Of a DNA stretch of 64,000 bases, positions 1 through 13,319 are shown piece after piece. The stretch lies in contig NZ_FWFV01000003.1 of assembly GCF_900172315.1 (NCBI RefSeq), positions 124,001 through 188,000 of the forward strand. Reading direction: 5' to 3'. Numbering within the stretch: position 1 is the first letter of the stretch; each line of letters begins with the position of its first letter. The notes beneath the pieces were generated by a model. It was not told the origin of the DNA. It did no database searches and saw nothing but the letters and a program-made list of their open reading frames with translations. Both the position numbers and the translations under genes were made by a program. The DNA is from Palleronia marisminoris. GTDB lineage: Bacteria > Pseudomonadota > Alphaproteobacteria > Rhodobacterales > Rhodobacteraceae.

Positions 1-102
1 GACGCGGATGTCGAAATCGCCCGCATCACGCAATGCGTCCACGATCAACCGCGCTCTTTCAGGCTCGGGCTCGACGATCACGATGGAGAGTTTGGGCGCC
101 AT
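1..102 (-). CDS. nasT: NasT-like ANTAR response regulator, N-terminal part only
   Basis: The minus strand starts with ATG at 102 and stays open to the window edge, giving 34 residues beginning MAPKLSIVIVEPEPERARLI and ending in DAGDFDIRV. This is the first beta strand and helix of a receiver-like domain as found in AmiR/NasT antiterminators. In that family a C-terminal ANTAR domain binds paired RNA hairpins and relieves termination upstream of nitrate/nitrite assimilation genes, under control of the sensor NasS. The ANTAR domain lies outside the window, so the assignment rests on the N-terminus only. Another receiver-domain protein is possible. Confidence 0.6.
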   Translation of the reverse strand, partial: MAPKLSIVIVEPEPERARLIVDALRDAGDFDIRV

Positions 103-782
103 TTCCGGGAGCGAACGCTACGGCGCGCAGAGTTCAACGCCAAACCATCCGGCGGGCGGCCTGCCCTCGGGGATGCCGGTCGCTGCGCCCGAATTCCGTG
201 CGGTCCGCCGCAAATTTGAGCGCTTCCGCAGCGGGGGCCGGCGCTTCCGTCGGGACCAGCTTACATCAGGGCGGTCGCGACGCCATATGATGGGGGCGGC
301 GGTATCCTCCGCCATAGAAAGGCGTCACTTGATGACCATGTTTTCCATGAAGCCGAAATTCGATCTTGCAGAATTCCTTGCCGTGCCCGCCCCCAAGGGA
401 GCAGCCCGGACCGGTGGCGCACGACGTCGCGGGACGCAGTTCCAGCCAAGTGCGGCATCGAAGGCGGCGTCCAAGCCCGCGGGTGCTGCGGTAGTCAGCC
501 CCTCGGACAAGGCCTGACTACCCGGCGCCTGGGCAGTCATGGGTGCCTCGGGGTCAGGGCACACGGCTTCTGACCCCATACCTGCCGGCGCGACACCATC
601 ACCTTCACCACGCATGCCGCCACGGCCTTTCGGCACGGTGTCGCCGCAGATGAAGTGCCCCGCGATCCTCTTCCTTCTTCCGCGGAAGAACCGGTGAAGG
701 GTTGCCTCTGCCGCTCGATCGCGCTTTTCCTGTGTCTTTCGGCGGTGCATCTGCATCCTGAAACGAAGAGGAGCCCGATTGC
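103..782. other. 680-base region without a convincing gene
   Basis: The segment separates the divergent nasT-like gene and the YjdF-like gene. Frames here lack family resemblance. The only faint candidate is a plus-strand frame from ATG 331 to 517 (about 61 residues, Ala/Lys-rich, basic), with a weak AAAGGCG upstream; I do not recognise it. An inverted repeat at 550-577 is the clearest structure. Downstream, GAGGAG near 768-773 is the ribosome-binding site of the next gene. Confidence 0.5.
550..577. other. Perfect 8-bp inverted repeat (hairpin)
   Basis: GGGGTCAG at 550-557 is matched by CTGACCCC at 570-577 with a 12-base loop. No T-tract follows on either strand, so it is not a standard intrinsic terminator. 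It lies 205 bases upstream of the YjdF-like gene and could be a regulator site or an RNA hairpin. Function not determined. Confidence 0.35.
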
Positions 783-1484
783 GTGAAGGCCAAGGTCACA
801 ACGCTGCTTTCGCGCCTGGTGTGGGCTCTCGCACTGGGGGCTCTTGGGTTCGGGATCGCGACCGGGGACCGGCTTCTGGTCCTGGGGGCCGGCGGCGCTG
901 TCGCGATGGCGCTGCTGCCGGTGGTCTACACCTGGCTTTCCGGCATCCTGGTACCGGCGGGGTTGCGGGACGGCATCCTGGTCTTCTGCCTTGCCGCCTT
1001 CGTCGGGGGCGAATGGGGCGGCCTGTATCAGGATGACCTGGTTTGGGACACGTCGCTTCACATCCTGGCCGCGGCGGTTCTGGCGCTGACCGGCTACGCG
1101 CTCGCGCTTCTACCTACTGCCGGGGCGCCGCCGCGGACCAGCCTCTGGGTGCTGTCGGTTCTTGCCGTCGGGTTGGCCTCGACCGTCGGCGCGGCATGGG
1201 AGCTGTTCGAGGCCACCGTCGACGCCCTCTTCGGCACCAACGCGCAGCGATCCGGCCTGCCCGACACGATGGGCGACATGGCCGCCAATCTCGCCGGGGC
1301 TATCTATGGCGCGATGGTCGGCCAGCTGGCGCTGCGGGGGCGCTGGCGGCTGCCCTTGTCCGGCCTTCTGCTGACGGCCCTGAGGCAGAACCCCGTCGTC
1401 TTCGGTGCCTATCCGGGCACCCCCTTCCCCCGACACACGGCACGGCCGAAACCGGCCGGATGGACAGGAGGCCGCACGTCTTGA
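783..1484 (+). CDS. YjdF/DUF2238-family integral membrane protein
   Basis: Predicted inner-membrane protein of 233 residues, with about six hydrophobic segments within the first 190 residues and a Pro/Arg-rich tail. The GTG start at 783 is preceded by GAGGAG about 10 bases upstream. The motifs WDTSLHILAA, AAWELFE and DTMGDMAANLAGA are characteristic of DUF2238 (YjdF) proteins, whose conserved acidic and His residues lie in the membrane. No biochemical role is known for the family. Its stop codon overlaps the TTG start of idi (TTGA), so it is almost certainly co-translated with idi and the aldehyde dehydrogenase. That makes it a candidate accessory protein of the isoprenoid/carotenoid island, but this is inference from position only. 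Confidence 0.75.
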   Translation: MKAKVTTLLSRLVWALALGALGFGIATGDRLLVLGAGGAVAMALLPVVYTWLSGILVPAGLRDGILVFCLAAFVGGEWGGLYQDDLVWDTSLHILAAAVLALTGYALALLPTAGAPPRTSLWVLSVLAVGLASTVGAAWELFEATVDALFGTNAQRSGLPDTMGDMAANLAGAIYGAMVGQLALRGRWRLPLSGLLLTALRQNPVVFGAYPGTPFPRHTARPKPAGWTGGRTS

Positions 1485-1996
1485 CCGATCTCATCCCCGC
1501 CTGGATCGATGGAGAGCTTGTGCCCGTCGAAAAGCTGCGCGTTCACCGCGAGGGGCTTCGGCACAAGGCCGTCTCGGTCTTCGTCAACGCGGGCGGCGAG
1601 ACGCTGATCCAGAAGCGCGCCGCCGCGAAATACCACACACCCGGCCTCTGGGCGAACGCCTGCTGCACCCATCCCCACTGGAGGGAGACACCCGACGCCT
1701 GCGCGCGCAGGCGTCTGCGCGAAGAGCTTGGCCTCTCGACCGATGCGCCCTTCGTGCATCGCGGACAGGTGACCTACCGGGCGGATGTGGGACAGGGTCT
1801 GACCGAACACGAAAGCGTCGAGATCTACACCGTCGACCTGCCCCGGAAGGTGACGCCTCACCCCGATCCGGCCGAGGTCGGCGACACGCGGTGGATGGGG
1901 TGGGATGCGCTCGAGCGTGAGATCGCCGCCCGACCCGATGCGTTCACCCCGTGGCTGCGCATCTACCTGGCCGACCATCGCGCGTTGGTCACTTGA
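1481..1996 (+). CDS. idi: Isopentenyl-diphosphate delta-isomerase, type 1
   Basis: Interconverts IPP and DMAPP in the cytosol, balancing the C5 pool used to make FPP, the precursor of squalene. It is a 171-residue Nudix-fold protein. The start is TTG at 1481, because AGGAGG at 1466-1471 sits nine bases upstream; an in-frame ATG at 1460 would place that site inside the gene. The catalytic cysteine is in NACCTHP (Cys62), followed by a Nudix-like REELGL helix and the EHESVEIY segment that carries the metal/acid glutamates. The gene overlaps its upstream neighbour by TTGA and the downstream aldehyde dehydrogenase by TTGA. Presence inside the carotenoid island suggests a role in raising flux to prenyl precursors. 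Confidence 0.92.
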   Translation: MTDLIPAWIDGELVPVEKLRVHREGLRHKAVSVFVNAGGETLIQKRAAAKYHTPGLWANACCTHPHWRETPDACARRRLREELGLSTDAPFVHRGQVTYRADVGQGLTEHESVEIYTVDLPRKVTPHPDPAEVGDTRWMGWDALEREIAARPDAFTPWLRIYLADHRALVT

Positions 1997-3351
1997 ACGA
2001 CGCGCTGGAAGCCGCGGCCCACGCGCTGCGCGTCGAGCCGGGGGTGCCGGACGTGGCGGCCCGGCGCGTGCATCTCGATGCGCTGGCCGATGCCGTGCGG
2101 GATGGTGCCGAGGCGCTCGTGGAGGCCATCGACGCCGATTTCGGGCACCGCCCCCGGCAGGAGACCTTGCTGACCGAAATCGCCATGGTGCTCGAGGCAG
2201 TCCGCTACAGTCGCAAACACCTGAAGGGCTGGTGCCGGCCAAGGCGCGTGATCCTGCCGCCGCACTTGTGGCCAGCACTGGGGAGGATCCGGCGCGAGCC
2301 GCTGGGCCTCGTGGGAATCCTGGCGCCGTGGAACTATCCGGTGCAGCTTGCACTCGTGCCGCTGGTCGCGGCGCTGGCCGGGGGCAACCGCGTGCTTCTG
2401 CACCCCTCCGAGCATACCCCCCGCACGTCCGAGGCGCTGAAGCGACTGGTCGAGGCGGCGGTGCCGGGTCGCGTCCGCGTCGTGACAGGCGGAACCGAAA
2501 TCGCGCAGGCGATGTGTGCCATGCCGCTCGACGGGCTGTTCTTCACCGGCTCGACCGAGACGGGGCGGCGAGTCATGGAAAGTGCCGCGCGCAATCTCGT
2601 GCCGGTCACGCTCGAACTGGGGGGGAAGTCACCCGCCATCGTTCGGGCCGATGCCGATCTGGCCGAAGCGGCCGAGTCCATCGTCGCCGGCAAGCTTCTG
2701 AACGCCGGTCAGACCTGTATCGCGCCGGACTATGCACTGGTCCCGCGCGCGCTGATGACCCCGTTCGAGGACGCGCTGCGCCACGCGGCCGACAAGCTCT
2801 ACCCCGATCCAGAGGGCGCCGATTATGCCACCATCGCCCGCGAGACCGATCTGGCGCGTCTCGGCGGGCTGCTCGAGGGGGTCGAGGCGCGGCCGCTGAT
2901 GACGCGGATGCCCGCGCCGCCGCGGATGGGGCTGTGGTCGGTGATCGATCCGCCCCCCGATCACCCGGTCATGGAGCAGGAGATTTTCGGCCCCGTCCTG
3001 CCCCTCGTGCCCTATGACGGCGAGGACGCGGCGCGTGCCTACGTGGCCGCGCGGCCGGTGCCGCTGGCCCTCTACGTCTATGGTCGGGACACTGGGGCGG
3101 CCTTGCGCGACGTGGATGCGCTGCGATCCGGCGGGGCGATGGTCAACGAGGCGGTCCAGCATGTGGGGGTGCAATCCCTGCCCTTCGGCGGCGCCGGCGC
3201 GTCGGGGATGGGCGCCTATCACGGCGACGAGGGGTTCCGCAGCTTCACCCGCCCCCGCAGCGTGATCGTCGCGCGCCGGTCCCTCGCCCGCATGGTGCGC
3301 CCGCCCTACGGCAGGAACATCGACCGCATCCTGCGTCACCTGTTGCGCTAG
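1993..3351 (+). CDS. Aldehyde dehydrogenase, probable carotenoid aldehyde dehydrogenase
   Basis: NAD(P)-dependent aldehyde dehydrogenase of 452 residues, resembling the short coniferyl/fatty-aldehyde class. Seen: LAPWNYPVQL (cofactor pocket), FTGSTETGRRV (Rossmann turn), general-base Glu208 in TLELGGKSP and the nucleophile Cys242 in AGQTCIAPD. The C-terminus is amphipathic/basic, which may tether it to membrane. The TTG start at 1993 overlaps the idi stop (TTGA); an upstream ATG at 1951 would give a longer overlap and no better site. In C30 carotenoid pathways an enzyme of this type oxidises the terminal diaponeurosporene- or diapolycopene-aldehyde to the carboxylate before sugar esterification. 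With two desaturases and a glycosyltransferase next door, that is the most economical reading. Its 3' end overlaps the convergent glycosyltransferase by four bases. Confidence 0.85.
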   Translation: MNDALEAAAHALRVEPGVPDVAARRVHLDALADAVRDGAEALVEAIDADFGHRPRQETLLTEIAMVLEAVRYSRKHLKGWCRPRRVILPPHLWPALGRIRREPLGLVGILAPWNYPVQLALVPLVAALAGGNRVLLHPSEHTPRTSEALKRLVEAAVPGRVRVVTGGTEIAQAMCAMPLDGLFFTGSTETGRRVMESAARNLVPVTLELGGKSPAIVRADADLAEAAESIVAGKLLNAGQTCIAPDYALVPRALMTPFEDALRHAADKLYPDPEGADYATIARETDLARLGGLLEGVEARPLMTRMPAPPRMGLWSVIDPPPDHPVMEQEIFGPVLPLVPYDGEDAARAYVAARPVPLALYVYGRDTGAALRDVDALRSGGAMVNEAVQHVGVQSLPFGGAGASGMGAYHGDEGFRSFTRPRSVIVARRSLARMVRPPYGRNIDRILRHLLR

Positions 3352-4475
3352 CCCAGGTCGTATCGCCTGCCCCGCCAGTTCGCCTGCCCCCCTCGCCGCG
3401 CCCGCAAAAGCGCCGTCCACTGGATCGCCAACAGAACCAGCACGCCCACCGGATGCAGCAGCACCGAGAGCCAGGACTGGTCGAGCCTCCGCGCCATGGC
3501 GATGCGTGCCGCGTAGACCAGAAGCACCGCGAGCGCCGACAGGCCTGCAGCGGCGACGGCCCCGGCGGCGAACGCGACGCCAAGCATCAGGAACGGCAGG
3601 ATGTGTCCTCCGAAGAGAAGCACCGTCCAGATCGGCAGGGCGCGCGGGGTGGCCATGCCTTCGGTGGCGTTCTTCACGAACCCTTCCCAGATTGCGGCGG
3701 GCGTGTCGTACATGCGGCAGGCAGCGATGTGGGTAGCGTCGGTCAGATCGGTGCGCCTCCCCGCCGCGCGGACGTTGCGAGGCAGGTTCAGCCCGTCATG
3801 CATCCGCGCGGCGAAAGCCGCATGCCCTCCTGCCGCGTCGTAAGCCGCGCGCCTGACCGCCAGAAGCTGGCCGCATCCGGCGGCAAGTGACGGATCGGGG
3901 CGGGTGCGGGACAGGGGAATCGGCAGATATCCCAGCAGCGTCGTGAAGATCTGCGGGATCGCCACCTGCTCGGCCGGCGTGAGGGTGATCTGCCGCGGGA
4001 AGCCCGAGAGAAGGTCGAGGCCCTCGCGCTCCATCTCGGCAACCAGCCGAGCGGCGGCGTCGGGGGCGAGCCGGACGTCGGCATCCACGAAGAACAGCAC
4101 CGGATGCGCCGCCGCACGACCCAACTGCATGCAGGCGTGGGTCTTGCCGATCCAGCCTTTGGGCAGCGGCGCGCCCTCGATCAGGCGCAGGCGCGGGTCG
4201 GTTGCGGCGCGCGCGGCGACGATCGCCCCCGTGCCGTCCGTCGAGCCGTCGTCGAGGACCACGACCTCGATCGTCACACCCGTCTGGGCCAGCGCCCCAT
4301 CGAGGGCGGCACCGATGCCGCCGGCTTCGTCGCGCGCGGGGATCAGGATCGATACGGCAGGAAGCGGCCCCTGCCCCGCTGGCGAAGGCGGGCGCAACGC
4401 CATCAGGTTCGCAGCGACCATCCCGGTAAAGAGCATAGCCAGCGTCAGTCCCAGGATCGAGAGCGCCAGGATCAT
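3348..4475 (-). CDS. Family 2 glycosyltransferase, CrtQ-like
   Basis: Membrane-bound GT2 enzyme of 375 residues. It has an N-terminal transmembrane helix (residues about 2-25), a GT-A catalytic domain with SILIPARDEAGGI, VVLDDGSTDGT and the metal-binding FFVDADVRL (DxD), a conserved LSGFPRQ segment, and three or four C-terminal hydrophobic segments. The architecture matches CrtQ, which transfers glucose to the carboxyl end of a C30 carotenoic acid in staphyloxanthin synthesis. The ATG at 4475 overlaps the acyltransferase stop (ATGA), making it the last gene of a four-gene minus-strand operon. Hopanoid or other lipid glycosyltransferases share this layout, so the substrate is inferred from neighbours. 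Confidence 0.8.
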   Translation of the reverse strand: MILALSILGLTLAMLFTGMVAANLMALRPPSPAGQGPLPAVSILIPARDEAGGIGAALDGALAQTGVTIEVVVLDDGSTDGTGAIVAARAATDPRLRLIEGAPLPKGWIGKTHACMQLGRAAAHPVLFFVDADVRLAPDAAARLVAEMEREGLDLLSGFPRQITLTPAEQVAIPQIFTTLLGYLPIPLSRTRPDPSLAAGCGQLLAVRRAAYDAAGGHAAFAARMHDGLNLPRNVRAAGRRTDLTDATHIAACRMYDTPAAIWEGFVKNATEGMATPRALPIWTVLLFGGHILPFLMLGVAFAAGAVAAAGLSALAVLLVYAARIAMARRLDQSWLSVLLHPVGVLVLLAIQWTALLRARRGGQANWRGRRYDLG

Positions 4476-5278
4476 CGGCGGGGCTCGTGGTCGGACACAT
4501 GCTCGCGCCCCGCCATCCGGTCGCGCAGGCGTTGCCACTGGCCGTAGACGCCGCCCGTGCCGCGGCGTCCGTCGATCAGACTCTCGAAGGCGGCCGGGTC
4601 GCGGGCGATGGCGCGGGTGGCGAGCGTGTCGGCGGTGTCGGTCAGCGCAGCCTCCAACCGCGCCGCGATTGCGTCCGGCCCGTCGGAGGGCGAAACCTCG
4701 ACGGGGGTGCCGAAGGCGAGAAGCGCCTCGGGGCGACGCTCGGACCAGAACGGGTATTCGACGGCCATCGGCACGGCCTGCACCTGCGGGCACCTTGCCA
4801 GAAGGTGCGCAGCGCCGGGGCGGAGGCCGAGGGGACGCTCGCGCATATCGGCGAAACGGCCTTGGGCGGTGATCCACATCACGCGGTCGGGCTCGTCCAG
4901 GATCCGGCGCCCGGTGCGCAGGAACTGCGCCGCGCCGCGCGCGCCGTCCTGCGGGACTCCGAAGACGCCGATCCGCGCCATGAAGCGGTAGCGCTCGAGC
5001 ATCTCGGCATCGATCGGGCCGAACCCCGCGCGCCCGGGGAACAGCACCCCGTGGACGGCCATGAACACCGCCGGGTCCCACCACGAGGGGTGATTGGTGA
5101 ACACCATCACCGGGCGGTCCGGGACCAGCTCCGGCAGGCCCGGCTTGGCCACGCGGAGGGCGCGGAAGTTGCGGGCGATCTGCCCGCGCATCACCCTTTC
5201 GAAGAAGGCGACCATCCGCGGCGAGCGGAGGGCGGCGGGATCACTCGGCGGCGACACCGGACCGCTCCGCGCCTGCAT
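4472..5278 (-). CDS. PlsC-type acyltransferase, possible glycosyl-carotenoid acyltransferase
   Basis: Protein of 268 residues with the 1-acylglycerol-3-phosphate acyltransferase fold. The HX4D catalytic motif is NHPSWWD (His63, Asp68), and a later acceptor-binding ITAQGRFAD segment replaces the usual FPEGTR-like block. There is no clear signal peptide and only weak hydrophobic stretches. In staphyloxanthin synthesis a membrane acyltransferase (CrtO) esterifies the sugar, but CrtO is a different fold; here a PlsC-like enzyme could do the equivalent step. That is inference from operon position between a desaturase and a glycosyltransferase. A plain phospholipid acyltransferase is the alternative. 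It overlaps the upstream desaturase by 38 bases and the downstream GT2 by ATGA. Confidence 0.75.
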   Translation of the reverse strand: MQARSGPVSPPSDPAALRSPRMVAFFERVMRGQIARNFRALRVAKPGLPELVPDRPVMVFTNHPSWWDPAVFMAVHGVLFPGRAGFGPIDAEMLERYRFMARIGVFGVPQDGARGAAQFLRTGRRILDEPDRVMWITAQGRFADMRERPLGLRPGAAHLLARCPQVQAVPMAVEYPFWSERRPEALLAFGTPVEVSPSDGPDAIAARLEAALTDTADTLATRAIARDPAAFESLIDGRRGTGGVYGQWQRLRDRMAGREHVSDHEPRR

Positions 5279-6764
5279 CCTCGTCGGCGGCGTCGGCGGC
5301 GATCCAGCCCGACATCAGCGCCATCGGCATCCCCGGCCCCGGGTGGGCCGACCCGCCAGCTAGATACAACCCTTCGACCTGGCGCGAGCGGTTGCCGGGC
5401 TTGAACGCGCCCAGCACGCGGCCATGGCTCGCCAGCCCGTAGATCGCGCCCTGAAGCACGTTGTAGCGGTCGTGGATGTCCTGCGGGGTCAACGTGCGTT
5501 CGACCGCGATGCGGTCCTCTAGGTCCGGCATCCCGGCGGTGCGCTTCAACTTGTCGAGGATCACGCGGCGATATTCGGGCAGCATCCGCGACCAGTCGTG
5601 GTGGTCGCGCAGGTAGGGGGTGTGCACGAGGACATAGAGCGCCTCGCCTCCTTCCGGTGCGACGCCGGGCTCGGTCCGGGCGGGGGCGGCGAGGTAGGCG
5701 GTGGGGTCCTGCGCCGGTTCGCCCCGGTCGTAGATCGCACCGAATTCCTCCTCGGGATCGCGCGAGAAGACGAAGTTGTGGTGCGCAAGGTGGTCGTAGC
5801 CTTCGCGCAGGCCCAGATAGAGCACGACGCCCGAGCAGGCAGGCTCGCGATTGCGGGACTTGCGAAAGGATTCCCACGCGTCGCCACCGATCAGTTCGCG
5901 GTAGGTGCGGACGCTGTCCATGTTCGACACGACCCGGTCCACGGCGATGCGCTCGCCCCCGTCGGTGACGACGGCGCGGGCGCGGCCGCTCTCGGTCTCG
6001 ACATGGGCGACGCCGGTGCCGGTGCGGATCTCGACCCCAAGCTCGCGCGCCAGCTTTTCGAGCGCTGCGGGCACGGCGCGCGTGCCGCCCATCGGATACC
6101 AGACCCCCTCGCCCTGCTGCATCTGGGCAATGCCGCAGAGGACGGCCGGAGAAGACAGGGGCGACGAGCCGACATACTGGATGAAGTGCTCCAGCATCTG
6201 CGCGACGCGCTTGTCCTTCACGTTCTTCTTGATCTGGCCGGCGACGGTGCGGTGCATCCGCAGCGCCATCACGTCGGACAGGGTCGAGAGGTTCATGTTC
6301 GCCTTGAGGTTCATCGTGTCGCGCAGATCCTCGACCGTGCGCCAGAAGAAGAACCGGTCCGATACGTCGGCGAGCCGCTTGGCGACATGCATGAAATCCT
6401 TGAACCCCGCGCGATCCTGCGGCGACAGGCGCGCGATCTCTTCGGCCGCGAGGGCCGGGTCGTCGCGCAGGTCCAAGACAGCGCCATCCTCGTAGAAGCA
6501 CCGCCATTGCGGGTCGAGCCGGCGCAGGTCGAGCTCGGCGTGAAGGTCCTTCCCCGCCTCGGCGAAGATGCGTTCGAGCACGCGGGGCATGGTCAGGATC
6601 GTCGGCCCCATGTCGAAGCGGTAGCCGCCTTCTTCCAGCACCGCCGCCTTGCCGCCGAGCCAGTCGTTGCGCTCCAGCAGCGTGACCTTGTGGCCACGCG
6701 CCGCCAGCGTGCAGGCCGCCGCGAGTCCGCCGAGGCCCCCTCCGATGATCGCGGTCGTGCTCAT
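5241..6764 (-). CDS. CrtI/CrtN-family carotenoid desaturase (copy 2)
   Basis: FAD-dependent phytoene-desaturase-family enzyme of 507 residues. The dinucleotide-binding motif IIGGGLGGLAAA opens the protein, followed by LGGKAAVLEEGGYRFDMGPT and the typical C-terminal FAD/substrate block GLYLAGGSAHPGPGMPMAL. The start is ATG 6764, with AGGAGG shortly upstream inside the preceding gene's end. It overlaps that gene by ATGA, so the two desaturases are translationally coupled. In C30 pathways one paralogue (CrtN) removes hydrogens from squalene or dehydrosqualene and the other (CrtP/CrtNb) oxidises the terminal methyl to an aldehyde. I cannot tell from sequence alone which paralogue does which step here. 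Confidence 0.88.
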   Translation of the reverse strand: MSTTAIIGGGLGGLAAACTLAARGHKVTLLERNDWLGGKAAVLEEGGYRFDMGPTILTMPRVLERIFAEAGKDLHAELDLRRLDPQWRCFYEDGAVLDLRDDPALAAEEIARLSPQDRAGFKDFMHVAKRLADVSDRFFFWRTVEDLRDTMNLKANMNLSTLSDVMALRMHRTVAGQIKKNVKDKRVAQMLEHFIQYVGSSPLSSPAVLCGIAQMQQGEGVWYPMGGTRAVPAALEKLARELGVEIRTGTGVAHVETESGRARAVVTDGGERIAVDRVVSNMDSVRTYRELIGGDAWESFRKSRNREPACSGVVLYLGLREGYDHLAHHNFVFSRDPEEEFGAIYDRGEPAQDPTAYLAAPARTEPGVAPEGGEALYVLVHTPYLRDHHDWSRMLPEYRRVILDKLKRTAGMPDLEDRIAVERTLTPQDIHDRYNVLQGAIYGLASHGRVLGAFKPGNRSRQVEGLYLAGGSAHPGPGMPMALMSGWIAADAADEDAGAERSGVAAE

Positions 6765-8338
6765 ATGGTGGCCTCCTTGGGTAGAGCGGTGGTCAGGTCG
6801 CTGGCCCCCGGAAGGTCGAGGTCGGTCGCGCAAAGGCGGCTGGCGATGCGCGCGCTTTCGAAGATCGTCGGCAGGCCCGAGCCGGGATGCGTGCCGCCAC
6901 CCGTCAAGTAGACGCCGTCGATATCCTCGAAGCGATTGCGCGGCCGCAGGTGCAACATCTGCCCCAGATTATGCGCCAGGTTGAACGTCGCCCCCTCGTA
7001 GACCGCCATCTGGCTCTGCCAGTCGGCGGGGGTGTACATGAGTTCGCTGCGGATCATCGGGCGGATGTCGCGCCCGGCGAGCTTCGACAGCCGGTCGAGG
7101 ATCTTCTCGCGGTAGGACGGCGCCAGCGTCGCCCAGTCCACACCGCCGGTCAGGTTGCCCACCGGAGCCAGGACGTAGAGTGTCGAATGGCCTTCAGGCG
7201 CCAGCGTGGGATCGGTGACCGACGCGTTCTGCACGTAGATCGTGGGGTCCCGCGGTGCCTGCCCTGCGTCGATCTCGGCCACGTTGCGCTCGTAATCGCC
7301 CGAGAAGGCGACGGTGTGATGGCTGAGCGGCAGCTGCCCCTCGAGCCCGAGATAGAGCATGAAGGTCGAGCAGGAGAACGTCTTGGACGCGATCTTCCGG
7401 TCGGTCCAGCGGCGCCGCGCGGCATCCGGCACCAGTTTCGTCATGGCGGTCGCGAAATCGGCGTTCATCACCACCGCGTCGGCCTCGTAGCTGCCCTTGT
7501 CCGTCACCGCGCCGGTCGCCCGTCGGCCCTTCAACGTCAGCTGACGCACGGGCTCGGACAGGCGCAGATCGACGCCCATCTCGCGGGCAATCCGGGCCAT
7601 GGCGGCGGTGATCGCGTTGCAGCCCCCCCGCGGATGGAACACGCCGAAGCCGTATTCGACATGGGCGATGATCGTGAAGAGCGACGGGCACTTGAAGGGC
7701 GACATCCCGAGGTACTTGGACTGGAACGAGAAGGCGACGCGCACGTCGGGGTTCTTGAACCAGCGGCGCAGTTCCCCGTCGACCGTCGACCAGGGGCGGA
7801 AGTTCGGCAACGCCCGGGTCATGTCGCCGCGCATCAGGTCGCGCGGCCCGAGGAAGGGGCGCTGCAGGATCGTGCGGAAGCTGTCGAACTTGGCGCGGTT
7901 CGCCTCGAGATAGGGGCCGACCTGGGCGGCATCCCTCTCGTCGATCGCGGCGACCTGCCGGGTCAGCTCTTCGAGGTCGTGGGTCGCGTCGATGGCACGG
8001 CCGTCGTCGAACTGCAGCCGGTACATCGGGTCGAGGCGGATGAGGTCCACCTCTTCCCGCAGATCACGACCGCAGGCCGAGAAGATCTCGGCCAGGATCT
8101 CGGGGTAAAGGAAAAATGTCGGCCCGATGTCGAAGGTGTAGCCGTCACGTTGGATCGCGCCGGTCCGGCCTCCGGGTTGGTCCTCCTTTTCCAGAAGCGT
8201 CACCTCGGCGCCCGCGGCGCGCAGGAGCATGGCCGAAGCCAGGCCTCCGGGCCCCGCGCCGATCACCAGGACGCGCCGTCCTGCAACGCCGGCACGTATG
8301 CCTTCGGCCAAGTCTATCGCGGTATTGTCGTTTGCCAT
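6761..8338 (-). CDS. CrtI/CrtN-family carotenoid desaturase (copy 1)
   Basis: FAD-dependent desaturase/oxidase of 525 residues, first gene of the minus-strand carotenoid operon. It shows VIGAGPGGLASAMLLRAAG (FAD), the QPGGRTG and FDIGPTFFLYP segments, and the C-terminal GVYLTGGGTHPGSGLPT block of CrtI-family enzymes. The ATG at 8338 begins MANDNTAID; an in-frame ATG at 8359 is the alternative. It is only moderately similar to the downstream paralogue, which suggests distinct steps rather than recent duplication. The 91-base gap to the divergent hpnC must contain both promoters. I see no PpsR-type TGT-N12-ACA palindrome there. Confidence 0.88.
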   Translation of the reverse strand: MANDNTAIDLAEGIRAGVAGRRVLVIGAGPGGLASAMLLRAAGAEVTLLEKEDQPGGRTGAIQRDGYTFDIGPTFFLYPEILAEIFSACGRDLREEVDLIRLDPMYRLQFDDGRAIDATHDLEELTRQVAAIDERDAAQVGPYLEANRAKFDSFRTILQRPFLGPRDLMRGDMTRALPNFRPWSTVDGELRRWFKNPDVRVAFSFQSKYLGMSPFKCPSLFTIIAHVEYGFGVFHPRGGCNAITAAMARIAREMGVDLRLSEPVRQLTLKGRRATGAVTDKGSYEADAVVMNADFATAMTKLVPDAARRRWTDRKIASKTFSCSTFMLYLGLEGQLPLSHHTVAFSGDYERNVAEIDAGQAPRDPTIYVQNASVTDPTLAPEGHSTLYVLAPVGNLTGGVDWATLAPSYREKILDRLSKLAGRDIRPMIRSELMYTPADWQSQMAVYEGATFNLAHNLGQMLHLRPRNRFEDIDGVYLTGGGTHPGSGLPTIFESARIASRLCATDLDLPGASDLTTALPKEATI

Positions 8339-8429
8339 CGGCCTCTGAATCCCTACCATCTGCAATCGCTTGAGGCGCGGGCATGAAATGTCATAGCTCG
8401 TCCCAGCCAAGCGCATAGATAAGTCTCGG

Positions 8430-9311
8430 ATGAGTAACGGCATGCAAAAATTCGAGACGCGACAAGGCGACGCATGGTCAACAGGCACCGGAAAGGCGCT
8501 GTCCGCCGCCCGGAAAAGCGAGAATTTCCCCGTCGCATCGGTCCTTTTGCCCCGTGATCTGCGGCCATCGGTCCTGGCGTTCTACGACGTGGTGCGGTCC
8601 GCCGACGACGTCGCCGACGATCCCGCCCTGTCGCGGGAAACGAAGCTCGCACGCCTCGACCTGATCGATCGCGCCCTGGCCGGCACCGCAACGTGGCAAC
8701 CGGCCGGGGCCCTGCAACTTGCGCTCGCGCAGGCGGGGCGTCCCGGCGCCATCCGTCACGCCACGAAGATGCTCGTGGCTTTCCGTGCCGATGCCGAGGG
8801 GAATATCTGCCGCGACTGGGAAGACCTGCGCGCCTATTGCGAGCATTCCGCCGTGCCGGTGGGCCGGTTTCTGCTGGAGCTGCATGGCGAAGGCGACGCG
8901 CCTTGCGCGGCATCCGACGGCTTGTGCGTGGCGCTGCAGGTGCTCAACCACCTGCAGGATCTCGGGTCCGACTGGTGCAAGCTGAGGCGCCTCTACCTGC
9001 CCCTCGACTGGATCGAGGCGGAAGGCGCGTCACCGGATGATCTGCGGGACGCGCAGCTTACCCCGGCGCTGCGGCGGGTGCTCGACCGGACGCTCGATGC
9101 AACCGACGCGGAACTGGCGCGCGCCGCCGCCCTGCCCCGGCTGATCCGTTCGCGCCGTCTCGCGGCCGAGACGCGGGTGATCCTGTCCCTCGCGCGGCAC
9201 CTGTCCGCACGGCTGAGACGCGAGGATCCGCTGGCATCCCGCGTCGCCGTCACTCGCGCCGCGGCCCTTCGCGCCGGCACGGCGGGCCTGACCCGGCTGG
9301 TGCGCGCGTGA
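8430..9311 (+). CDS. hpnC: HpnC, hydroxysqualene synthase of the squalene pathway
   Basis: Member of the squalene/phytoene synthase superfamily, 293 residues. The family's first aspartate-rich motif is RSADDVADD (residues 57-64) and the second is NHLQDLGSD (173-181); the LQDLGSD form is typical of HpnC rather than CrtB. The N-terminal SENFPVASVLLPRDLRP stretch is also an HpnC signature. In the three-enzyme route HpnD makes presqualene diphosphate from two FPP, HpnC converts it to hydroxysqualene and HpnE reduces that to squalene. It is translated from ATG 8430 (ATG 8442 possible) and overlaps hpnD by GTGA. There is no hopanoid cyclase nearby, so the squalene probably feeds the adjacent desaturases. 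Confidence 0.9.
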   Translation: MSNGMQKFETRQGDAWSTGTGKALSAARKSENFPVASVLLPRDLRPSVLAFYDVVRSADDVADDPALSRETKLARLDLIDRALAGTATWQPAGALQLALAQAGRPGAIRHATKMLVAFRADAEGNICRDWEDLRAYCEHSAVPVGRFLLELHGEGDAPCAASDGLCVALQVLNHLQDLGSDWCKLRRLYLPLDWIEAEGASPDDLRDAQLTPALRRVLDRTLDATDAELARAAALPRLIRSRRLAAETRVILSLARHLSARLRREDPLASRVAVTRAAALRAGTAGLTRLVRA

Positions 9312-10174
9312 ACATCTCGAACGACAGGTCGATGACGGATCCGGCCATGCGGCTGATGCCCGAGGAGATCGTCCTGGGCTCGGGAAGCTCGTTCCGGTTC
9401 GGAATGCGCCTGCTGCCGGCCGGGCGGCGGCAGGCGATCATCGCCATCTATGCCTTTTGCCGCGCCGTGGACGATATCGTCGACGGCCCCCTGCCCCATG
9501 CCAGCAAGATCGCCGGGGTGGATGCCTGGCAGCGCGAGCTGGAGCTTGCCGCCCGCGGCGCGGCGAGGACGCCGGTGGGGCAAGACCTGACCCGCGCCAT
9601 CGTCCGGTTCGACCTGCCGCTCGAGGAATTCGCGCTCGTCATCGATGGGATGCGCATGGATCTGTCCGGCATGGTCGCGCCCGATCGCGCGACCTTCGAC
9701 GCCTATATCCGCCGGGTCGCCGGTGCCGTGGGCATCCTGTCGATGCACGTGTTCGGCGCCTGGCGGGGCGAGACCTCGCGCCGTTTCGCCCTGTCGCTGG
9801 CCCGCGCGCTGCAGATGACGAACATCCTGCGCGACGTGGAAGAGGACGCAGCCTTGGGGCGGCTCTATCTACCCGCCGATCTGCTGGACGATACGGGCGT
9901 GCCGCACGATCCCGTCCGCGTTCCCGGCGCGCCCGGCCTTCCCGAGGTTCGTGCACGGCTCGCGACCGAGGCCCGCGCCGCCTTCACCGAAGCCCGGCGC
10001 GAGATCCCGAACCATTCCCGGCTGCGCCTGTCGCCTGCGCTTCTGATGATGGGGCCCTATGACAGGCTGCTCAGGCGCATCGAGGCCGACCCCTCGCGCG
10101 CGCCGGCCCACCGTGGCGGCATCGGCAAGGCCTGTGACGGGATCCGTTGCATGGTCCGGCCGGGCCGCGCGTAG
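9308..10174 (+). CDS. hpnD: HpnD, presqualene diphosphate synthase
   Basis: Squalene/phytoene synthase superfamily enzyme of 288 residues that condenses two FPP into presqualene diphosphate. The metal-binding motifs are DDIVD (residues 55-59, in FCRAVDDIVD) and DVEED (176-180, in TNILRDVEED), and GSSFRFGMRLLP near residue 25 is typical of HpnD. It starts at GTG 9308, overlapping the hpnC stop, and ends three bases before hpnE. The C-terminal LLMMGPYDRLLRRIEADP region fits HpnD better than CrtB. A bifunctional phytoene synthase is less likely because hpnC and hpnE flank it. Confidence 0.9.
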   Translation: MNISNDRSMTDPAMRLMPEEIVLGSGSSFRFGMRLLPAGRRQAIIAIYAFCRAVDDIVDGPLPHASKIAGVDAWQRELELAARGAARTPVGQDLTRAIVRFDLPLEEFALVIDGMRMDLSGMVAPDRATFDAYIRRVAGAVGILSMHVFGAWRGETSRRFALSLARALQMTNILRDVEEDAALGRLYLPADLLDDTGVPHDPVRVPGAPGLPEVRARLATEARAAFTEARREIPNHSRLRLSPALLMMGPYDRLLRRIEADPSRAPAHRGGIGKACDGIRCMVRPGRA

Positions 10175-10177
10175 GTC

Positions 10178-11416
10178 ATGCGACGTGTCCATGTGATCGG
10201 CGCCGGTCTGGCGGGACTTTCTGCGGCGCTGCGGCTCACCTCGGCGGATGTCGAGGTCGTGCTGTGGGAGGCGACCGGCCGCGCCGGCGGGCGATGCTGG
10301 AGCTTCCATGACAGCCAGCTGGATCGGCTCATCGACAACGGCAATCACCTCGTATTGTCCGGCAACACCGCGGTTCTGGATTATTGCCGGCGGATCGGCA
10401 GCTTCGACCGGCTACGGATCGCCCCGGAGGCCGCCCTTCCCTTCGTCGACCTTGCGGACGGCGCGCGCTGGACCGTCAGGGTGCCCGACGGTTCGCGCGA
10501 CCTGCTGCAAGGGGGCCTTAGCCTGCCGCCCGGGGTTGGGGCCGGGGCGCTTCTCGATACCGCGCGCCTGCTGAGCGCCGGGGCGACCCGCACGGTCGCG
10601 GACGTGATCCGGCCCGGTGGTCCTGCCCGAACGCGGCTGTGGGATCCCCTGTCGCTCGCCATCCTGAACGCCTCGCCCGAGGACGGTGCGGCGCACCCCC
10701 TCGCCGCCGTTCTGCGCCGGACGGTTCTGCGGGGGGCGGCGGCGTGCCGGCCGGTCACGATGCCGGACGGGCTGGGCCCGACGCTGGTAGAGCCGGCGCT
10801 CGCCACGCTTGCCGCGTCCGGATGCGTCCCGCGCTTCCGCAACCCCTTGCGCGGCTTGAAGAAGCAGGACGGGCGGATCAGCGCCCTTGTCTTCGACGCC
10901 TCCGAGGTTGCGCTTGGCCATGACGAGCGGGTCATCCTCGCGGTGCCGGCCCCGGCGGCGGGGCGGCTGCTCGAACTGCCCGCACCGGCGGCGGGACAAT
11001 CGATCCTGAACGCGCATTTCCGAATTTCGCCGGAACCGCCCGTCGAGACGTTTCCCCTGCTTGGGGTGCTGTCGGGGCTGGCCCAGTGGATCTTCGTGCG
11101 CGGCGACGTGGTCTCGGTCACCGTCTCGGCGGCCGACGGGGTAGAGATGCACGACTCCGACGCCACACTCGACCGGCTCTGGACCGAAACGGCGGCCGCC
11201 CTGGCGATCCAGGGACGGCCGGTGGCACGGCGGCTTCTGCGCGAGAAAGCCGCGACGTTCTCGCCCGCTCCCGCGGAGCTGGCACGGCGTCTGAAGTCCG
11301 GCACGCCGTGGGAAAACCTGCACCTCGCCGGAGACCATGTCGCGTCGCCCCTCCCTTCGACCATCGAGGGAGCCATCGCCTCGGGCGACGCGGCAGCGCA
11401 GAGCGCCGTCGCGTGA
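10178..11416 (+). CDS. hpnE: HpnE, squalene-associated FAD-dependent desaturase/reductase
   Basis: Amine-oxidase/CrtI-like flavoprotein of 412 residues. The N-terminal Rossmann motif VIGAGLAGLSAALRL is followed by AGGRCWSF and the HpnE signature LIDNGNHLVLSGN. The C-terminus carries NLHLAGDHVASPLPSTIEGA, a block nearly invariant in HpnE and close to the FAD site. The enzyme reduces hydroxysqualene to squalene with NADPH. It starts at ATG 10178, three bases after hpnD, and completes the FPP-to-squalene module. About 200 bases without a clear terminator separate it from the oxidase locus. Confidence 0.92.
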   Translation: MRRVHVIGAGLAGLSAALRLTSADVEVVLWEATGRAGGRCWSFHDSQLDRLIDNGNHLVLSGNTAVLDYCRRIGSFDRLRIAPEAALPFVDLADGARWTVRVPDGSRDLLQGGLSLPPGVGAGALLDTARLLSAGATRTVADVIRPGGPARTRLWDPLSLAILNASPEDGAAHPLAAVLRRTVLRGAAACRPVTMPDGLGPTLVEPALATLAASGCVPRFRNPLRGLKKQDGRISALVFDASEVALGHDERVILAVPAPAAGRLLELPAPAAGQSILNAHFRISPEPPVETFPLLGVLSGLAQWIFVRGDVVSVTVSAADGVEMHDSDATLDRLWTETAAALAIQGRPVARRLLREKAATFSPAPAELARRLKSGTPWENLHLAGDHVASPLPSTIEGAIASGDAAAQSAVA

Positions 11417-11617
11417 AGCCCGCCTTGGCCAGCATACTGGAACCTTTGCTGCCGTGGCGCGGTTGTTTTTTTCAAGGCGCCGCACCGTGTCGGGCCGCAC
11501 ATATACGCGCCTATCGACTTGCATAGAGCGGCCTTCGCCGGGACAGTGGCCTCGATTGCCCACGACACCTAGGGCGGCCGTACGCGGCTTGCGTCGCATC
11601 AACGGGGAGCAGATCCG

Positions 11618-12316
11618 ATGGACGGGATTTACTGCGGGCCTCCACCGCTGCCGGCCCAACTCTGGACGAGTTGGAACTTCGACCCGCCGCTCATCGCGGC
11701 GCTTCTGGTGCTGGCCGTGGCGGTGCGCCACGAGCGCGCCGGGCTGCTGGCGCTCGGCGCGCTCGTGCTCGCCTTCGTCTCGCCGCTGTGCGCACTGTCT
11801 TCGGCGCTGTTCTCGGCGCGGGTCGTGCACCACGTCCTTCTGGTCGCGATCGCGGCGCCGCTGCTTGCATCCGCGTGGCCGGGCCGGCGCCCGGGAAGTC
11901 CCGCCCTGCCCTTCGCGGTCTCGGCCGTGACCCTGTGGGCTTGGCACATCCCGGCCGCCTATGACCTCGCCCTTGCGAATGTCGCCGTCTATTGGGTGAT
12001 GCAGATCACGCTTCTGGCCAGCGCCGTGTGGTTCTGGCGCGCCGTGCTGGCCGACATCGGGTCGCCCGTCGACCGGCTGTTCTTCATCGTCGCCGGCTTC
12101 GCGCAGATGGGGATGCTGGGCGCGATCCTTACCTTCGCGCCGGGCGCGCTCTATGCCGCCCATGCCGTCGCGCCGTTCTCGTGGGGGCTGACCCCGCTTC
12201 AGGATCAGCAGCTCGGCGGGCTGCTCATGTGGGTTCCGGCCGGCATTCCCTACGCGGTGGCGGCGATCCTGGTGGCGCGGCGCAGCTGGTCGCGCCTTGC
12301 GGGTGCCGCAACATGA
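11618..12316 (+). CDS. ctaG: CtaG-family (caa3-type) oxidase assembly membrane protein
   Basis: Polytopic membrane protein of 232 residues, about seven hydrophobic segments, matching the caa3_CtaG family (distinct from the Cox11 copper chaperone also called CtaG). Seen: ITPL-region CSPLCALSS-type helix, VVHHVLLVAIAAPLLA with paired histidines, LWAWHIPAAYDLAL, and a C-terminal DQQLGGLLMWVPAG motif conserved in the family. It is needed for assembly of some heme-copper oxidases, possibly by copper delivery. ATG 11618 follows GGGGAG. The stop overlaps the next gene's ATG (ATGA), and oxidase subunits follow, so the gene opens the terminal oxidase operon. Confidence 0.85.
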   Translation: MDGIYCGPPPLPAQLWTSWNFDPPLIAALLVLAVAVRHERAGLLALGALVLAFVSPLCALSSALFSARVVHHVLLVAIAAPLLASAWPGRRPGSPALPFAVSAVTLWAWHIPAAYDLALANVAVYWVMQITLLASAVWFWRAVLADIGSPVDRLFFIVAGFAQMGMLGAILTFAPGALYAAHAVAPFSWGLTPLQDQQLGGLLMWVPAGIPYAVAAILVARRSWSRLAGAAT

Positions 12317-12825
12317 TCGAATGGATCCTGGCAACGGTGCCCATCCTCAAGGGGGTGCATATCGCGGGCCTGACGATCTGGTGTGGCGGGCTTCTGGCGC
12401 TGCCACTGATGCTCGGGCGCCATCACCCCGGAATGGAGGCCGAGGATTACGACCTCATCCGGCGTGCGGTCCACACGACCTACACGATGTGCGTGACGCC
12501 AGCGGCGGTGATCGCGGTCATCGCCGGGACGTGGCTGATCTTCACGCGCGAAGCCTTCGTGCCGTGGCTTTACGCCAAGCTTGCCTTCGTCGCCCTGCTG
12601 GTGCTCGTGCACGCCTGGTTCGGCCATCTGATCGTTCAGGCTGCCGAGGAGCCTCAGGAGCATACGCCCCCCAAGGCGTACCTCCTGATCTCGGCGGCGC
12701 TCGTTCCCGTCATCGCCATCCTGTTCCTGGTGCTCGCGAAGCCCGCGCTCGGCTGGATCAGCTTCCCGGACCTGCTGCTCGAGCCGCGGAACAATCAGCT
12801 GCTCTTCGACGTGCCAAGACGATAG
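12313..12825 (+). CDS. HemJ/CopD-like four-helix membrane protein
   Basis: Protein of 170 residues with four hydrophobic helices. The pattern LKGVHIAGLTIWCGGLLALP, then a conserved TPAAVIAVIAGTWL segment and YAKLAFVALLVLVHAWFG resembles UPF0093/HemJ (protoporphyrinogen oxidase) and the related CopD fold; both place a conserved His in the first helix. In this position, between ctaG and oxidase subunits, a role in heme or copper supply to the oxidase is likely, but true HemJ activity is not established. It overlaps ctaG by ATGA, and its last 31 bases overlap the convergent DUF2231 gene. Confidence 0.65.
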   Translation: MIEWILATVPILKGVHIAGLTIWCGGLLALPLMLGRHHPGMEAEDYDLIRRAVHTTYTMCVTPAAVIAVIAGTWLIFTREAFVPWLYAKLAFVALLVLVHAWFGHLIVQAAEEPQEHTPPKAYLLISAALVPVIAILFLVLAKPALGWISFPDLLLEPRNNQLLFDVPRR

Positions 12826-13319
12826 TCAAAGACGAGCTTGCCCCCATGCCAACCCGTGAATGCCACCATGCCCGCGCAGAGTGCCGACAGGAGGATGCCG
12901 TAAGGCAGCACCGCCTCTTCGAAGCCGTAGAGCCGATGGCCCCAGTTCGCGCCGAGCAGGGCAAGAAGCGTCACCGCGATGATGAAATGCGTCCAGGCCG
13001 CCGCGCGCACCCGGATGCCGGGAACCAGCAGAAGTTCGGCCGTGCCCGAGAAACCGGCCAGCATGCCGAAGAGGAAGCCCGTCCCGGCCGCCCACATGCC
13101 CGCGCGCGCCCAGAACACGTCGCCGGACCACCAATAAAGCAGGTCCGCCCCGAAGACGCAGAAGGCAAGCGCCACGGGGAACGCCACGCTCATCGCATGG
13201 ATCGGGTGGCCGTGCAGCGAGATCCGCGACTCCGTTTGCTGAAAGCCCGCCATCTCGCCGATAGGGTCGACCAGCTCTTCTTCCCCTTTGCCTTCGTTCT
13301 GGGTGTTCTCGGTCGCCAT
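12795..13319 (-). CDS. DUF2231-family membrane protein
   Basis: Membrane protein of 174 residues with an acidic cytoplasmic N-terminus and four hydrophobic segments. SLHGHPIHAMSVAFPVALA, with the HPIH pair, and the later AAAWTHF and TGWHGGKLVF histidines are typical of DUF2231, whose helices may hold heme. It is often found beside terminal oxidase genes. It is encoded opposite to the oxidase genes and embedded among them: its 3' end overlaps the HemJ-like gene, and its 5' end overlaps the region where the subunit II N-terminus must start. The ATG at 13319 is well placed by homology of the MATENTQ-like leader. Function unknown. Confidence 0.75.
   Translation of the reverse strand: MATENTQNEGKGEEELVDPIGEMAGFQQTESRISLHGHPIHAMSVAFPVALAFCVFGADLLYWWSGDVFWARAGMWAAGTGFLFGMLAGFSGTAELLLVPGIRVRAAAWTHFIIAVTLLALLGANWGHRLYGFEEAVLPYGILLSALCAGMVAFTGWHGGKLVFDYRLGTSKSS

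What the first reader, a model, noticed from the sequence alone, without database searches (positions are those of the whole stretch)
1481..11416. Complete squalene-route C30 carotenoid cluster in a Rhodobacterales-like genome
The genes hpnCDE, two CrtN/CrtI-family desaturases, an aldehyde dehydrogenase, a CrtQ-like GT2 and a PlsC-like acyltransferase are contiguous with idi, and there is no squalene-hopene cyclase. Established: HpnCDE makes squalene from FPP; CrtN-type enzymes can desaturate squalene in some methylotrophs and planctomycetes; C30 acids are glycosylated and acylated in staphyloxanthin-like pigments. Inference: this cluster makes a glycosylated, acylated diapocarotenoic acid. 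Rhodobacterales usually make C40 spheroidene or astaxanthin-type pigments, so this would be unusual.
Basis: partly seen in the sequence, partly recalled or inferred. Interest (0 to 1): 0.8.

Follow-up and report, generated by a model that had tools for sequence, protein, structure and literature searches.

The report
Squalene-route C30 carotenoid gene cluster
A bacterium of the Rhodobacteraceae carries one compact set of genes that very probably builds an unusual short (C30) carotenoid pigment from squalene, a route known from Methylobacterium and planctomycetes, and in this family the whole set appears to pass between species as one block.

Summary
The host genome (3.75 Mb, 99.8% complete) has no squalene-hopene cyclase match, no third CrtI-family gene over cut-off and no credible crtB or crtE, so squalene to C30 pigment is the only carotenoid route found. 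Desaturases A and B form clades apart from CrtI and CrtD. Together with AT and GT they match, in the same order, the M. extorquens genes (META1p3670, 3665, 3664, 3663) behind an acyl-glucosyl diapolycopenedioic acid.

Beyond it: the seven core genes keep the same order in 18 of 18 distinct Rhodobacteraceae clusters examined, and their tree contradicts rpoB, so the block moves horizontally. In the host's genus (14 genomes; Palleronia, from one contig match), eight genomes have reaction-centre genes and CrtD only, four have these plus the C30 cluster, and two, including this one, have the C30 cluster only. The clustered aldehyde dehydrogenase is a candidate for the acid-forming step, whose enzyme is unidentified in M. 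extorquens. No pigment chemistry was available.

The parts
783..1484 (+). Conserved membrane protein, no Pfam match; probable cluster-associated gene of unknown role
   Evidence: 0 Pfam families even at E 10; homologue beside the C30 cluster in 14 of 18 distinct Rhodobacteraceae loci; alignment of 8 of these 14
1481..1996 (+). idi, isopentenyl-diphosphate isomerase (TTG start)
   Evidence: NF002995 129.2 bits over cut-off 127; NUDIX PF00293
1984..3351 (+). Aldehyde dehydrogenase, class-3-like, proposed to oxidise the C30 aldehyde to the acid (GTG start at 1984 or 1951)
   Evidence: PF00171; the 12 closest solved chains (E 1e-68 or better) include five named class-3, dimeric NADP-preferring or fatty aldehyde dehydrogenases, other types follow from about 1e-43; clade of cluster ALDHs at support 100
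3348..4475 (-). GT2 glycosyltransferase (counterpart of META1p3663)
   Evidence: PF00535; 52.4% to the gene between the META1p3663 primer sites in L166
4472..5278 (-). PlsC-like acyltransferase (counterpart of META1p3664)
   Evidence: PF01553 sub-threshold 19.5 bits; 48.6% to the gene between the META1p3664 primer sites in L166
5241..6764 (-). Desaturase B, CrtP-type (counterpart of META1p3665)
   Evidence: TIGR02734 435 bits; 66% to the gene next to the acyltransferase in L166; own clade
6761..8338 (-). Desaturase A, CrtN-type (counterpart of META1p3670)
   Evidence: TIGR02734 524 bits; 50% to the second desaturase of L166; own clade
8430..9311 (+). hpnC, second step of squalene synthesis
   Evidence: TIGR03464 234.6 bits, best family but under cut-off 250.45; PF00494
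9308..10174 (+). hpnD, presqualene diphosphate synthase
   Evidence: TIGR03465 261.3 bits, best family but under cut-off 278.6; PF00494
10178..11416 (+). hpnE, hydroxysqualene dehydroxylase
   Evidence: TIGR03467 293.1 bits over cut-off 283.05

Best explanation
A self-contained C30 carotenoid biosynthetic cluster. Idi balances C5 units, and HpnD, HpnC and HpnE turn two FPP into squalene. CrtN-type desaturase A and CrtP-type desaturase/oxidase B convert squalene to a desaturated diapocarotenoid with terminal aldehyde(s). The clustered ALDH oxidises these to 4,4'-diapolycopen(di)oic acid, the GT2 adds a sugar as an ester and the PlsC-like enzyme acylates the sugar. In this genome it is the only carotenoid pathway found: reaction-centre genes and CrtD over cut-off, present in 12 of the 14 genomes of the genus, are absent here. 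The cluster is not the vertical counterpart of that of its nearest relative G787 but belongs with those of Limimaricola, G107, G018 and G050. Shown: gene content, correspondence to tested genes, absence of the rival pathways, tree conflict. Inferred: the reactions, the exact product, horizontal transfer and its direction.
For: Gene content. No SHC match, no further CrtI-family gene over cut-off, no credible crtB, two prenyl synthases only. A, B, CrtI and CrtD are four separate clades (larger tree). All seven core genes in the same divergent order in 18 of 18 distinct Rhodobacteraceae loci, ALDH in 16. C30 tree against rpoB tree with AU rejection of window+G787 (p 3.3e-6), G791+G795 (p 0.0019) and the genus as one clade (p 8e-41).
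Against: HpnC and HpnD score best in their families but below the curated cut-offs; the acyltransferase is below Pfam's cut-off. Clade A includes Rhodopirellula proteins (L102, L107, L121), and R. rubra is described as C40-forming (PMC12078418), so clade A alone is not proof of C30. The tree used the quick method and warned of long branches meeting between B and CrtD. Four Methylobacterium-type genomes show no counterpart of this ALDH, so its role rests on gene neighbourhood. M. extorquens PA1 has the GT and AT genes but reportedly shows no such modification (PMC10448405 part 4). The sisterhood with G787 is 85/96 on protein, 99/98 on DNA. Old duplication with differential loss instead of transfer is not excluded. 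No pigment data for this organism.
Confidence: 0.85

Rival explanations
1. The two desaturases are CrtI/CrtD of an ordinary C40 pathway and hpnCDE serves something else.
For: All belong to the broad TIGR02734 family, and desaturase B also scores 337 bits with a CrtD model (cut-off 580).
Against: Separate clades; no credible crtB and two prenyl synthases only; no gene over the CrtD cut-off in this genome; the seven core genes stay together in 18 of 18 loci.
Confidence: 0.03
2. The squalene is made for hopanoids or other triterpenes, and the desaturases are incidental neighbours.
For: hpnCDE are classic hopanoid-cluster genes (established knowledge).
Against: No SQHop_cyclase_C match in the genome; shc hits in Rhodobacterales 4 against 1337 GyrB hits, under 1% (PMC12583986, passages); linkage with desaturases in 18 of 18 loci.
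Confidence: 0.02
3. A C30 carotenoid is made, but the end product differs: a free or methylated diapolycopene(di)oate, a dialdehyde, or a di-glycosyl ester, with GT/AT weakly or differently used as reported for M. extorquens PA1.
For: PA1 has the GT/AT genes but a different product (PMC10448405); sugar and acyl specificity cannot be read from sequence; GT and AT identity to the Methylobacterium counterparts is only 49-52% in L166.
Against: GT and AT are kept next to the desaturases in 18 of 18 Rhodobacteraceae loci, and in 40 of the other 72 named loci A, B, AT and GT occur together (many of those contigs are cut short).
Confidence: 0.15

Closest known systems
Methylobacterium (Methylorubrum) extorquens AM1 C30 pathway (META1p3663-3665, 3670; hpnCDE 1815-1817)
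   Same: Corresponding GT, PlsC-like AT, CrtP-type and CrtN-type genes in the same order; squalene from HpnCDE; AM1 product 4-[2-O-11Z-octadecenoyl-glucopyranosyl]-4,4'-diapolycopenedioic acid (PMC10448405).
   Different: In AM1 hpnCDE lie elsewhere with shc, other genes lie between CrtP and CrtN, and the ALDH is unidentified; here everything is at one locus with an ALDH and idi, and no shc is found.
First carotenoid cluster 'crtIP and hpnCD' of Palleronia sp. LCG004 and P. marisminoris CECT 7066 (PMC11638410)
   Same: Very probably the same cluster in the same genus; reported as the only one of four pigment clusters in P. marisminoris, a strain without the photosynthesis clusters.
   Different: The terms C30, diapo, squalene, glycosyltransferase and acyltransferase do not occur in its main text; it is discussed as part of light capture (section 16).
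Planctopirus limnophila squalene-route C30 carotenoids (Santana-Molina et al. 2022; known through PMC10448405 and PMC12078418, paper itself not held)
   Same: Squalene precursor from HpnCDE; the desA-(ALDH)-desB-AT-GT cassette is seen in planctomycete contigs.
   Different: The planctomycete-type cluster ALDH belongs to another ALDH clade, and no hpnCDE match (tblastn E 1e-8 with the window's proteins) lies in the fetched planctomycete loci.
Staphyloxanthin pathway (crtOPQMN + aldH)
   Same: Same logical order: C30 backbone, CrtN, CrtP, AldH, GT, AT.
   Different: Backbone by CrtM (dehydrosqualene), not HpnCDE/squalene; CrtO found no homologue in AM1, whose AT is the PlsC-like type seen here (PMC10448405).

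Membership tests
Squalene-route (HpnCDE) C30 carotenoid cluster | HpnC, HpnD and HpnE encoded | tested here: met
   Best-scoring families; HpnE over cut-off, HpnC and HpnD somewhat below
Squalene-route (HpnCDE) C30 carotenoid cluster | CrtN-type and CrtP-type desaturases, not CrtI/CrtD | tested here: met
   Four separate clades, with the Methylobacterium counterparts inside clades A and B; caveats: Rhodopirellula members in clade A, long-branch warning for B and CrtD
Squalene-route (HpnCDE) C30 carotenoid cluster | GT and PlsC-like AT next to CrtP, in the META1p3663-3664-3665 order | tested here: met
   (primer sites in L166)
Squalene-route (HpnCDE) C30 carotenoid cluster | Aldehyde dehydrogenase that makes the acid | tested here: inconclusive
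   Gene present in 16 of 18 loci; activity not testable; no counterpart in four Methylobacterium-type genomes
Squalene-route (HpnCDE) C30 carotenoid cluster | C30 pigment in the cells, made from squalene | not testable with these tools
   Needs HPLC-MS or labelling
C40 (CrtE/CrtB/CrtI/CrtD) carotenoid pathway | crtB, crtE and CrtI/CrtD-clade desaturase | tested here: not met
   prenyl synthase and crtB assignments partly by eye
Hopanoid cluster | Squalene-hopene cyclase | tested here: not met
   PF13243 0 matches in the genome
Staphyloxanthin (CrtM) type | CrtM dehydrosqualene synthase instead of HpnCDE | tested here: inconclusive
   The SQS_PSY genes found are best matched by HpnC and HpnD models, plus one partial protein, and HpnE is present; no CrtM reference was compared directly

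The most novel reading that the evidence does not exclude
In Palleronia-type Rhodobacteraceae the C30 route is a horizontally mobile second pigment system that works alongside the C40 photosynthetic carotenoids in some genomes (C30 cluster + CrtD + reaction centre in 4 of 14 of the genus) and remains as the sole carotenoid route once photosynthesis and C40 are gone (2 of 14, including this genome). Its class-3-like ALDH would be a new kind of diapocarotenal dehydrogenase, recruited separately from the planctomycete-type cluster ALDH.
Probability: 0.55. Interest if true: 0.6.

Novelty: new member of a known kind. Interest (0 to 1): 0.45.

Why it matters
It places the squalene route to C30 carotenoids in a family better known for C40 photosynthetic carotenoids, in a form where all genes, including an aldehyde dehydrogenase, sit at one locus that can be moved into a test host. 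That makes an open question directly testable: which enzyme forms the acid, unidentified in M. extorquens (PMC10448405). Genomes holding both routes offer a natural test of what C30 and C40 pigments each do in one aerobic phototroph.

Tried and rejected
C40 pathway and hopanoid readings were tested and rejected (see rivals). A tRNA-His called by ARAGORN inside the GT2 gene (4200-4299) is treated as false: Rfam gives no match at gathering threshold in the window. A search for the missing Methylobacterium ALDH with the window ALDH gave only background-type ALDHs in four genomes: no answer. PpsR-, RpoE- and RpoH-like motifs (recalled patterns) in the desA-hpnC gap of 18 loci gave matches only in L076: no shared regulator seen. 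Higher G+C of 1-12000 (about 0.695 against about 0.659 for the rest, averaged by hand) was not used as proof of transfer, because the cluster genes are G+C-rich in other hosts too. The membrane protein 783-1484 could not be assigned; no structure was predicted. The additional CrtI-family genes of G786, G788 and G790 were checked: each lies beside an SQS_PSY gene and is only 30-34% like A and B, so they were read as C40 crtI-crtB pairs, not C30. Literature: no held paper contains both 'C30 carotenoid' and 'Rhodobacterales'. Santana-Molina 2022 and Rizk 2021 are not held (both identifiers were recalled); they are known only as cited by others.

The 18 distinct Rhodobacteraceae loci are the window, L060-L065, L074-L076, L078-L080 and L228-L232; L077 (=L063) and L082 (=L228) were dropped as duplicates. 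They come from searches for desaturase A, so loci with the other genes but no A would be missed. The ALDH tree took the best hit per locus and left out rows under 330 aa. The trees are FastTree or quick trees; searches are careful ones.
Full report
OBSERVATION. From left to right: idi 1481-1996+, ALDH 1984-3351+, then on the minus strand GT2 3348-4475, PlsC-like acyltransferase 4472-5278, desaturase B 5241-6764 and desaturase A 6761-8338, then on the plus strand hpnC 8430-9311, hpnD 9308-10174 and hpnE 10178-11416. HpnE passes its curated cut-off; HpnC and HpnD are best in their families but a little below. The acyltransferase is below the Pfam cut-off.

GENOME CONTEXT. The window is part of a 3.75 Mb genome, 99.79% complete. 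Over its cut-off, the CrtI family finds only the two window desaturases; the third-best match has 35 bits. The squalene-hopene cyclase family finds nothing. SQS_PSY finds HpnC, HpnD and one partial protein (72.8 bits) whose translation lacks the Asp-rich motifs (judged by eye). Polyprenyl synthases: two, which read as FPP synthase and long-chain quinone type (by eye). So no C40 or hopanoid route was found.

WHAT THE DESATURASES ARE. A FastTree tree of 210 rows separates A (99 rows, support 100), B (75 rows, 99; 79 with four distant ones, 100) and C40-type references (32 rows, 100). A quick tree of 62 rows with CrtD added gives A (23), B (20), CrtI (11) and CrtD (8) each as one clade, SH-aLRT 100, with a warning that the long branches of B and CrtD meet. 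The CrtD references are over the NF045637 cut-off. The 11 CrtI rows are among 19 scanned: all match TIGR02734, and their best E with the CrtD model is 4.1e-73; the member printed has 236 bits against a cut-off of 580. Against a simple reading: clade A contains Rhodopirellula proteins, and R. rubra is described as C40-forming (PMC12078418, passages).

ANCHOR TO EXPERIMENT. In M. extorquens AM1 the pigment is 4-[2-O-11Z-octadecenoyl-glucopyranosyl]-4,4'-diapolycopenedioic acid. Deletion and complementation assign META1p3663 (GT) and META1p3664 (PlsC-like AT); META1p3665 (CrtP-type) and META1p3670 (CrtN-type) are needed for colour; deleting two ALDH candidates had no effect and the ALDH is called missing (PMC10448405, parts 1-4 of 6 read). 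At those sites lie counterparts of our GT (52%) and AT (49%), next to desaturase B (66%) and, about 3.8 kb further, desaturase A (50%). The same block is in four more genomes of that genus (L167-L170).

DISTRIBUTION. In 295 family genomes (drawn evenly) desaturase A at 64% identity or more occurs in 7; 121 have only 30-37% matches at E 1e-60. Two of the 7 (G107, G058) also hold a distant CrtI-family gene close to an SQS_PSY gene, a likely C40 pair. In a class-wide sample of 385, eight genomes (this one and seven at 52-58%) carry the type; nine others match at 34-38%. Of 80 named loci (best 80 of 587), 72 lie outside Rhodobacteraceae: 50 of these also hold a B gene at 54% or more, 40 hold A, B, AT and GT, 36 an ALDH match, and 2 any hpn gene; many contigs are cut short. 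They come from Azospirillum, Acetobacteraceae, Verrucomicrobia, Acidobacteria, Planctomycetes and others. Rhodobacteraceae by name: Limimaricola soesokkakensis, L. cinnabarinus, Jannaschia rubra, J. seosinensis, Jannaschia sp. Os4, an uncultured Jannaschia, Roseitranquillus sediminis, Palleronia aestuarii. In 18 of 18 distinct Rhodobacteraceae loci the seven core genes are present in the same divergent order; ALDH in 16 (either orientation), the membrane protein in 14, idi in 2. A single-locus version with hpnCDE also occurs in an Acetobacteraceae MAG (L112, with a related ALDH), and in part (hpnC, hpnD) in Roseomonas harenae (L131).

GENUS LEVEL. Of 14 genomes, reaction-centre genes are in 12 and a gene over the CrtD cut-off in 12 (12 of 13 relatives, not this genome). 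Desaturase A at 68% or more is in six: this genome and G789 (neither reaction centre nor CrtD), and G787, G791, G794, G795 (both present); all six clusters are complete. The other eight have reaction centre and CrtD without it. Extra CrtI-family genes in three of these eight (G786, G788, G790) lie beside an SQS_PSY gene and are 30-34% like A and B, so they look like C40 pairs. Palleronia sp. LCG004 was already reported to have a 'crtIP and hpnCD' cluster beside its photosynthesis clusters, and P. marisminoris CECT 7066 only the former (PMC11638410, sections 13 and 16 and passages).

HORIZONTAL TRANSFER. By rpoB this genome is sister to G787 (protein 85/96, DNA 99/98; 96% identity) and G791 to G795 (100/99 protein). 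The seven-gene C30 tree instead puts the window with G018, G050, G107 and Limimaricola (100/100), and G787, G789, G795 within a Jannaschia group (100/100). AU tests reject window+G787 (p 3.3e-6), G791+G795 (p 0.0019) and the genus as one clade (p 8e-41). The best reading is that the cluster moves as a block; which genome received it, and old duplication with losses, are not settled. In the rpoB tree this genome is nested among genomes with reaction centres (7-row set at 100/98 holding six of them and this genome), so its lack of a reaction centre is best read as a loss.

THE ALDEHYDE DEHYDROGENASE. Its 12 closest solved relatives (E 1e-68 or better) include five named class-3, dimeric NADP-preferring or fatty aldehyde dehydrogenases; the very best are named only as aldehyde, steroid-aldehyde or benzaldehyde dehydrogenase. 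In a quick tree of 81 ALDHs the 17 Rhodobacteraceae rows (two from one genome) form, with one Acetobacteraceae and four Verrucomicrobia cluster ALDHs, one clade (100). Thirty cluster ALDHs from planctomycetes, verrucomicrobia, acidobacteria, Azospirillum and others form another (100). All 28 background ALDHs from this and four Methylobacterium-type genomes fall in neither; one further cluster-locus ALDH (L137) falls among the background. So two ALDH lineages appear to have been recruited to C30 clusters, and the Methylobacterium-type genomes searched show neither, in line with the failure to find AldH in AM1.

MECHANISM. FPP to squalene (HpnD, HpnC, HpnE), desaturation and terminal oxidation (A, B), aldehyde to acid (ALDH), glycosylation (GT2), acylation (PlsC-like). 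Steps are inferred from correspondence to tested genes and families; the ALDH step from neighbourhood only.

VERDICT. The finding is real and the reading is right in its main line. The pathway kind is known; what is added here is its completeness at one locus, its spread and mobility in Rhodobacteraceae, its coexistence with C40 and reaction-centre genes, and an ALDH candidate.

Noticed in passing
L228:8784-9239, L166:17164-17778, and 33 other loci: A DUF2141-like protein gene is found in 35 of 104 C30 loci searched (two of the 35 are duplicates; many loci are cut short), e.g. between desaturase A and hpnC in 10 of 18 distinct Rhodobacteraceae clusters and beside desaturase A in the Methylobacterium-type loci, but not in this window. 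Pfam confirmed PF09912 in the 4 scanned. DUF2141 was earlier noted beside crtG in Sphingomonadales (PMC5989583, passages).
   Followed up: partly
   Followed up: partly
window 4200-4299 -: ARAGORN calls a tRNA-His inside the GT2 coding region; Rfam finds no RNA family in the window at gathering threshold, so probably a false call.
   Followed up: yes
window 11618-16471 +: Downstream of hpnE lies a CtaG-like gene (PF09678), followed by ORFs that read like cytochrome oxidase subunits, including an 836-aa ORF with subunit I and III parts (read by eye).
   Followed up: no
G787, G791, G794, G795 (L232, L229, L228, L231): Four genomes of the genus hold a complete C30 cluster, a gene over the CrtD cut-off and reaction-centre genes.
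   Followed up: partly
L076 (Jannaschia sp. Os4), gap between desA and hpnC: Two TGT-N12-ACA palindromes (PpsR-like, motif recalled) in the gap; in none of the other 17 loci.
   Followed up: no
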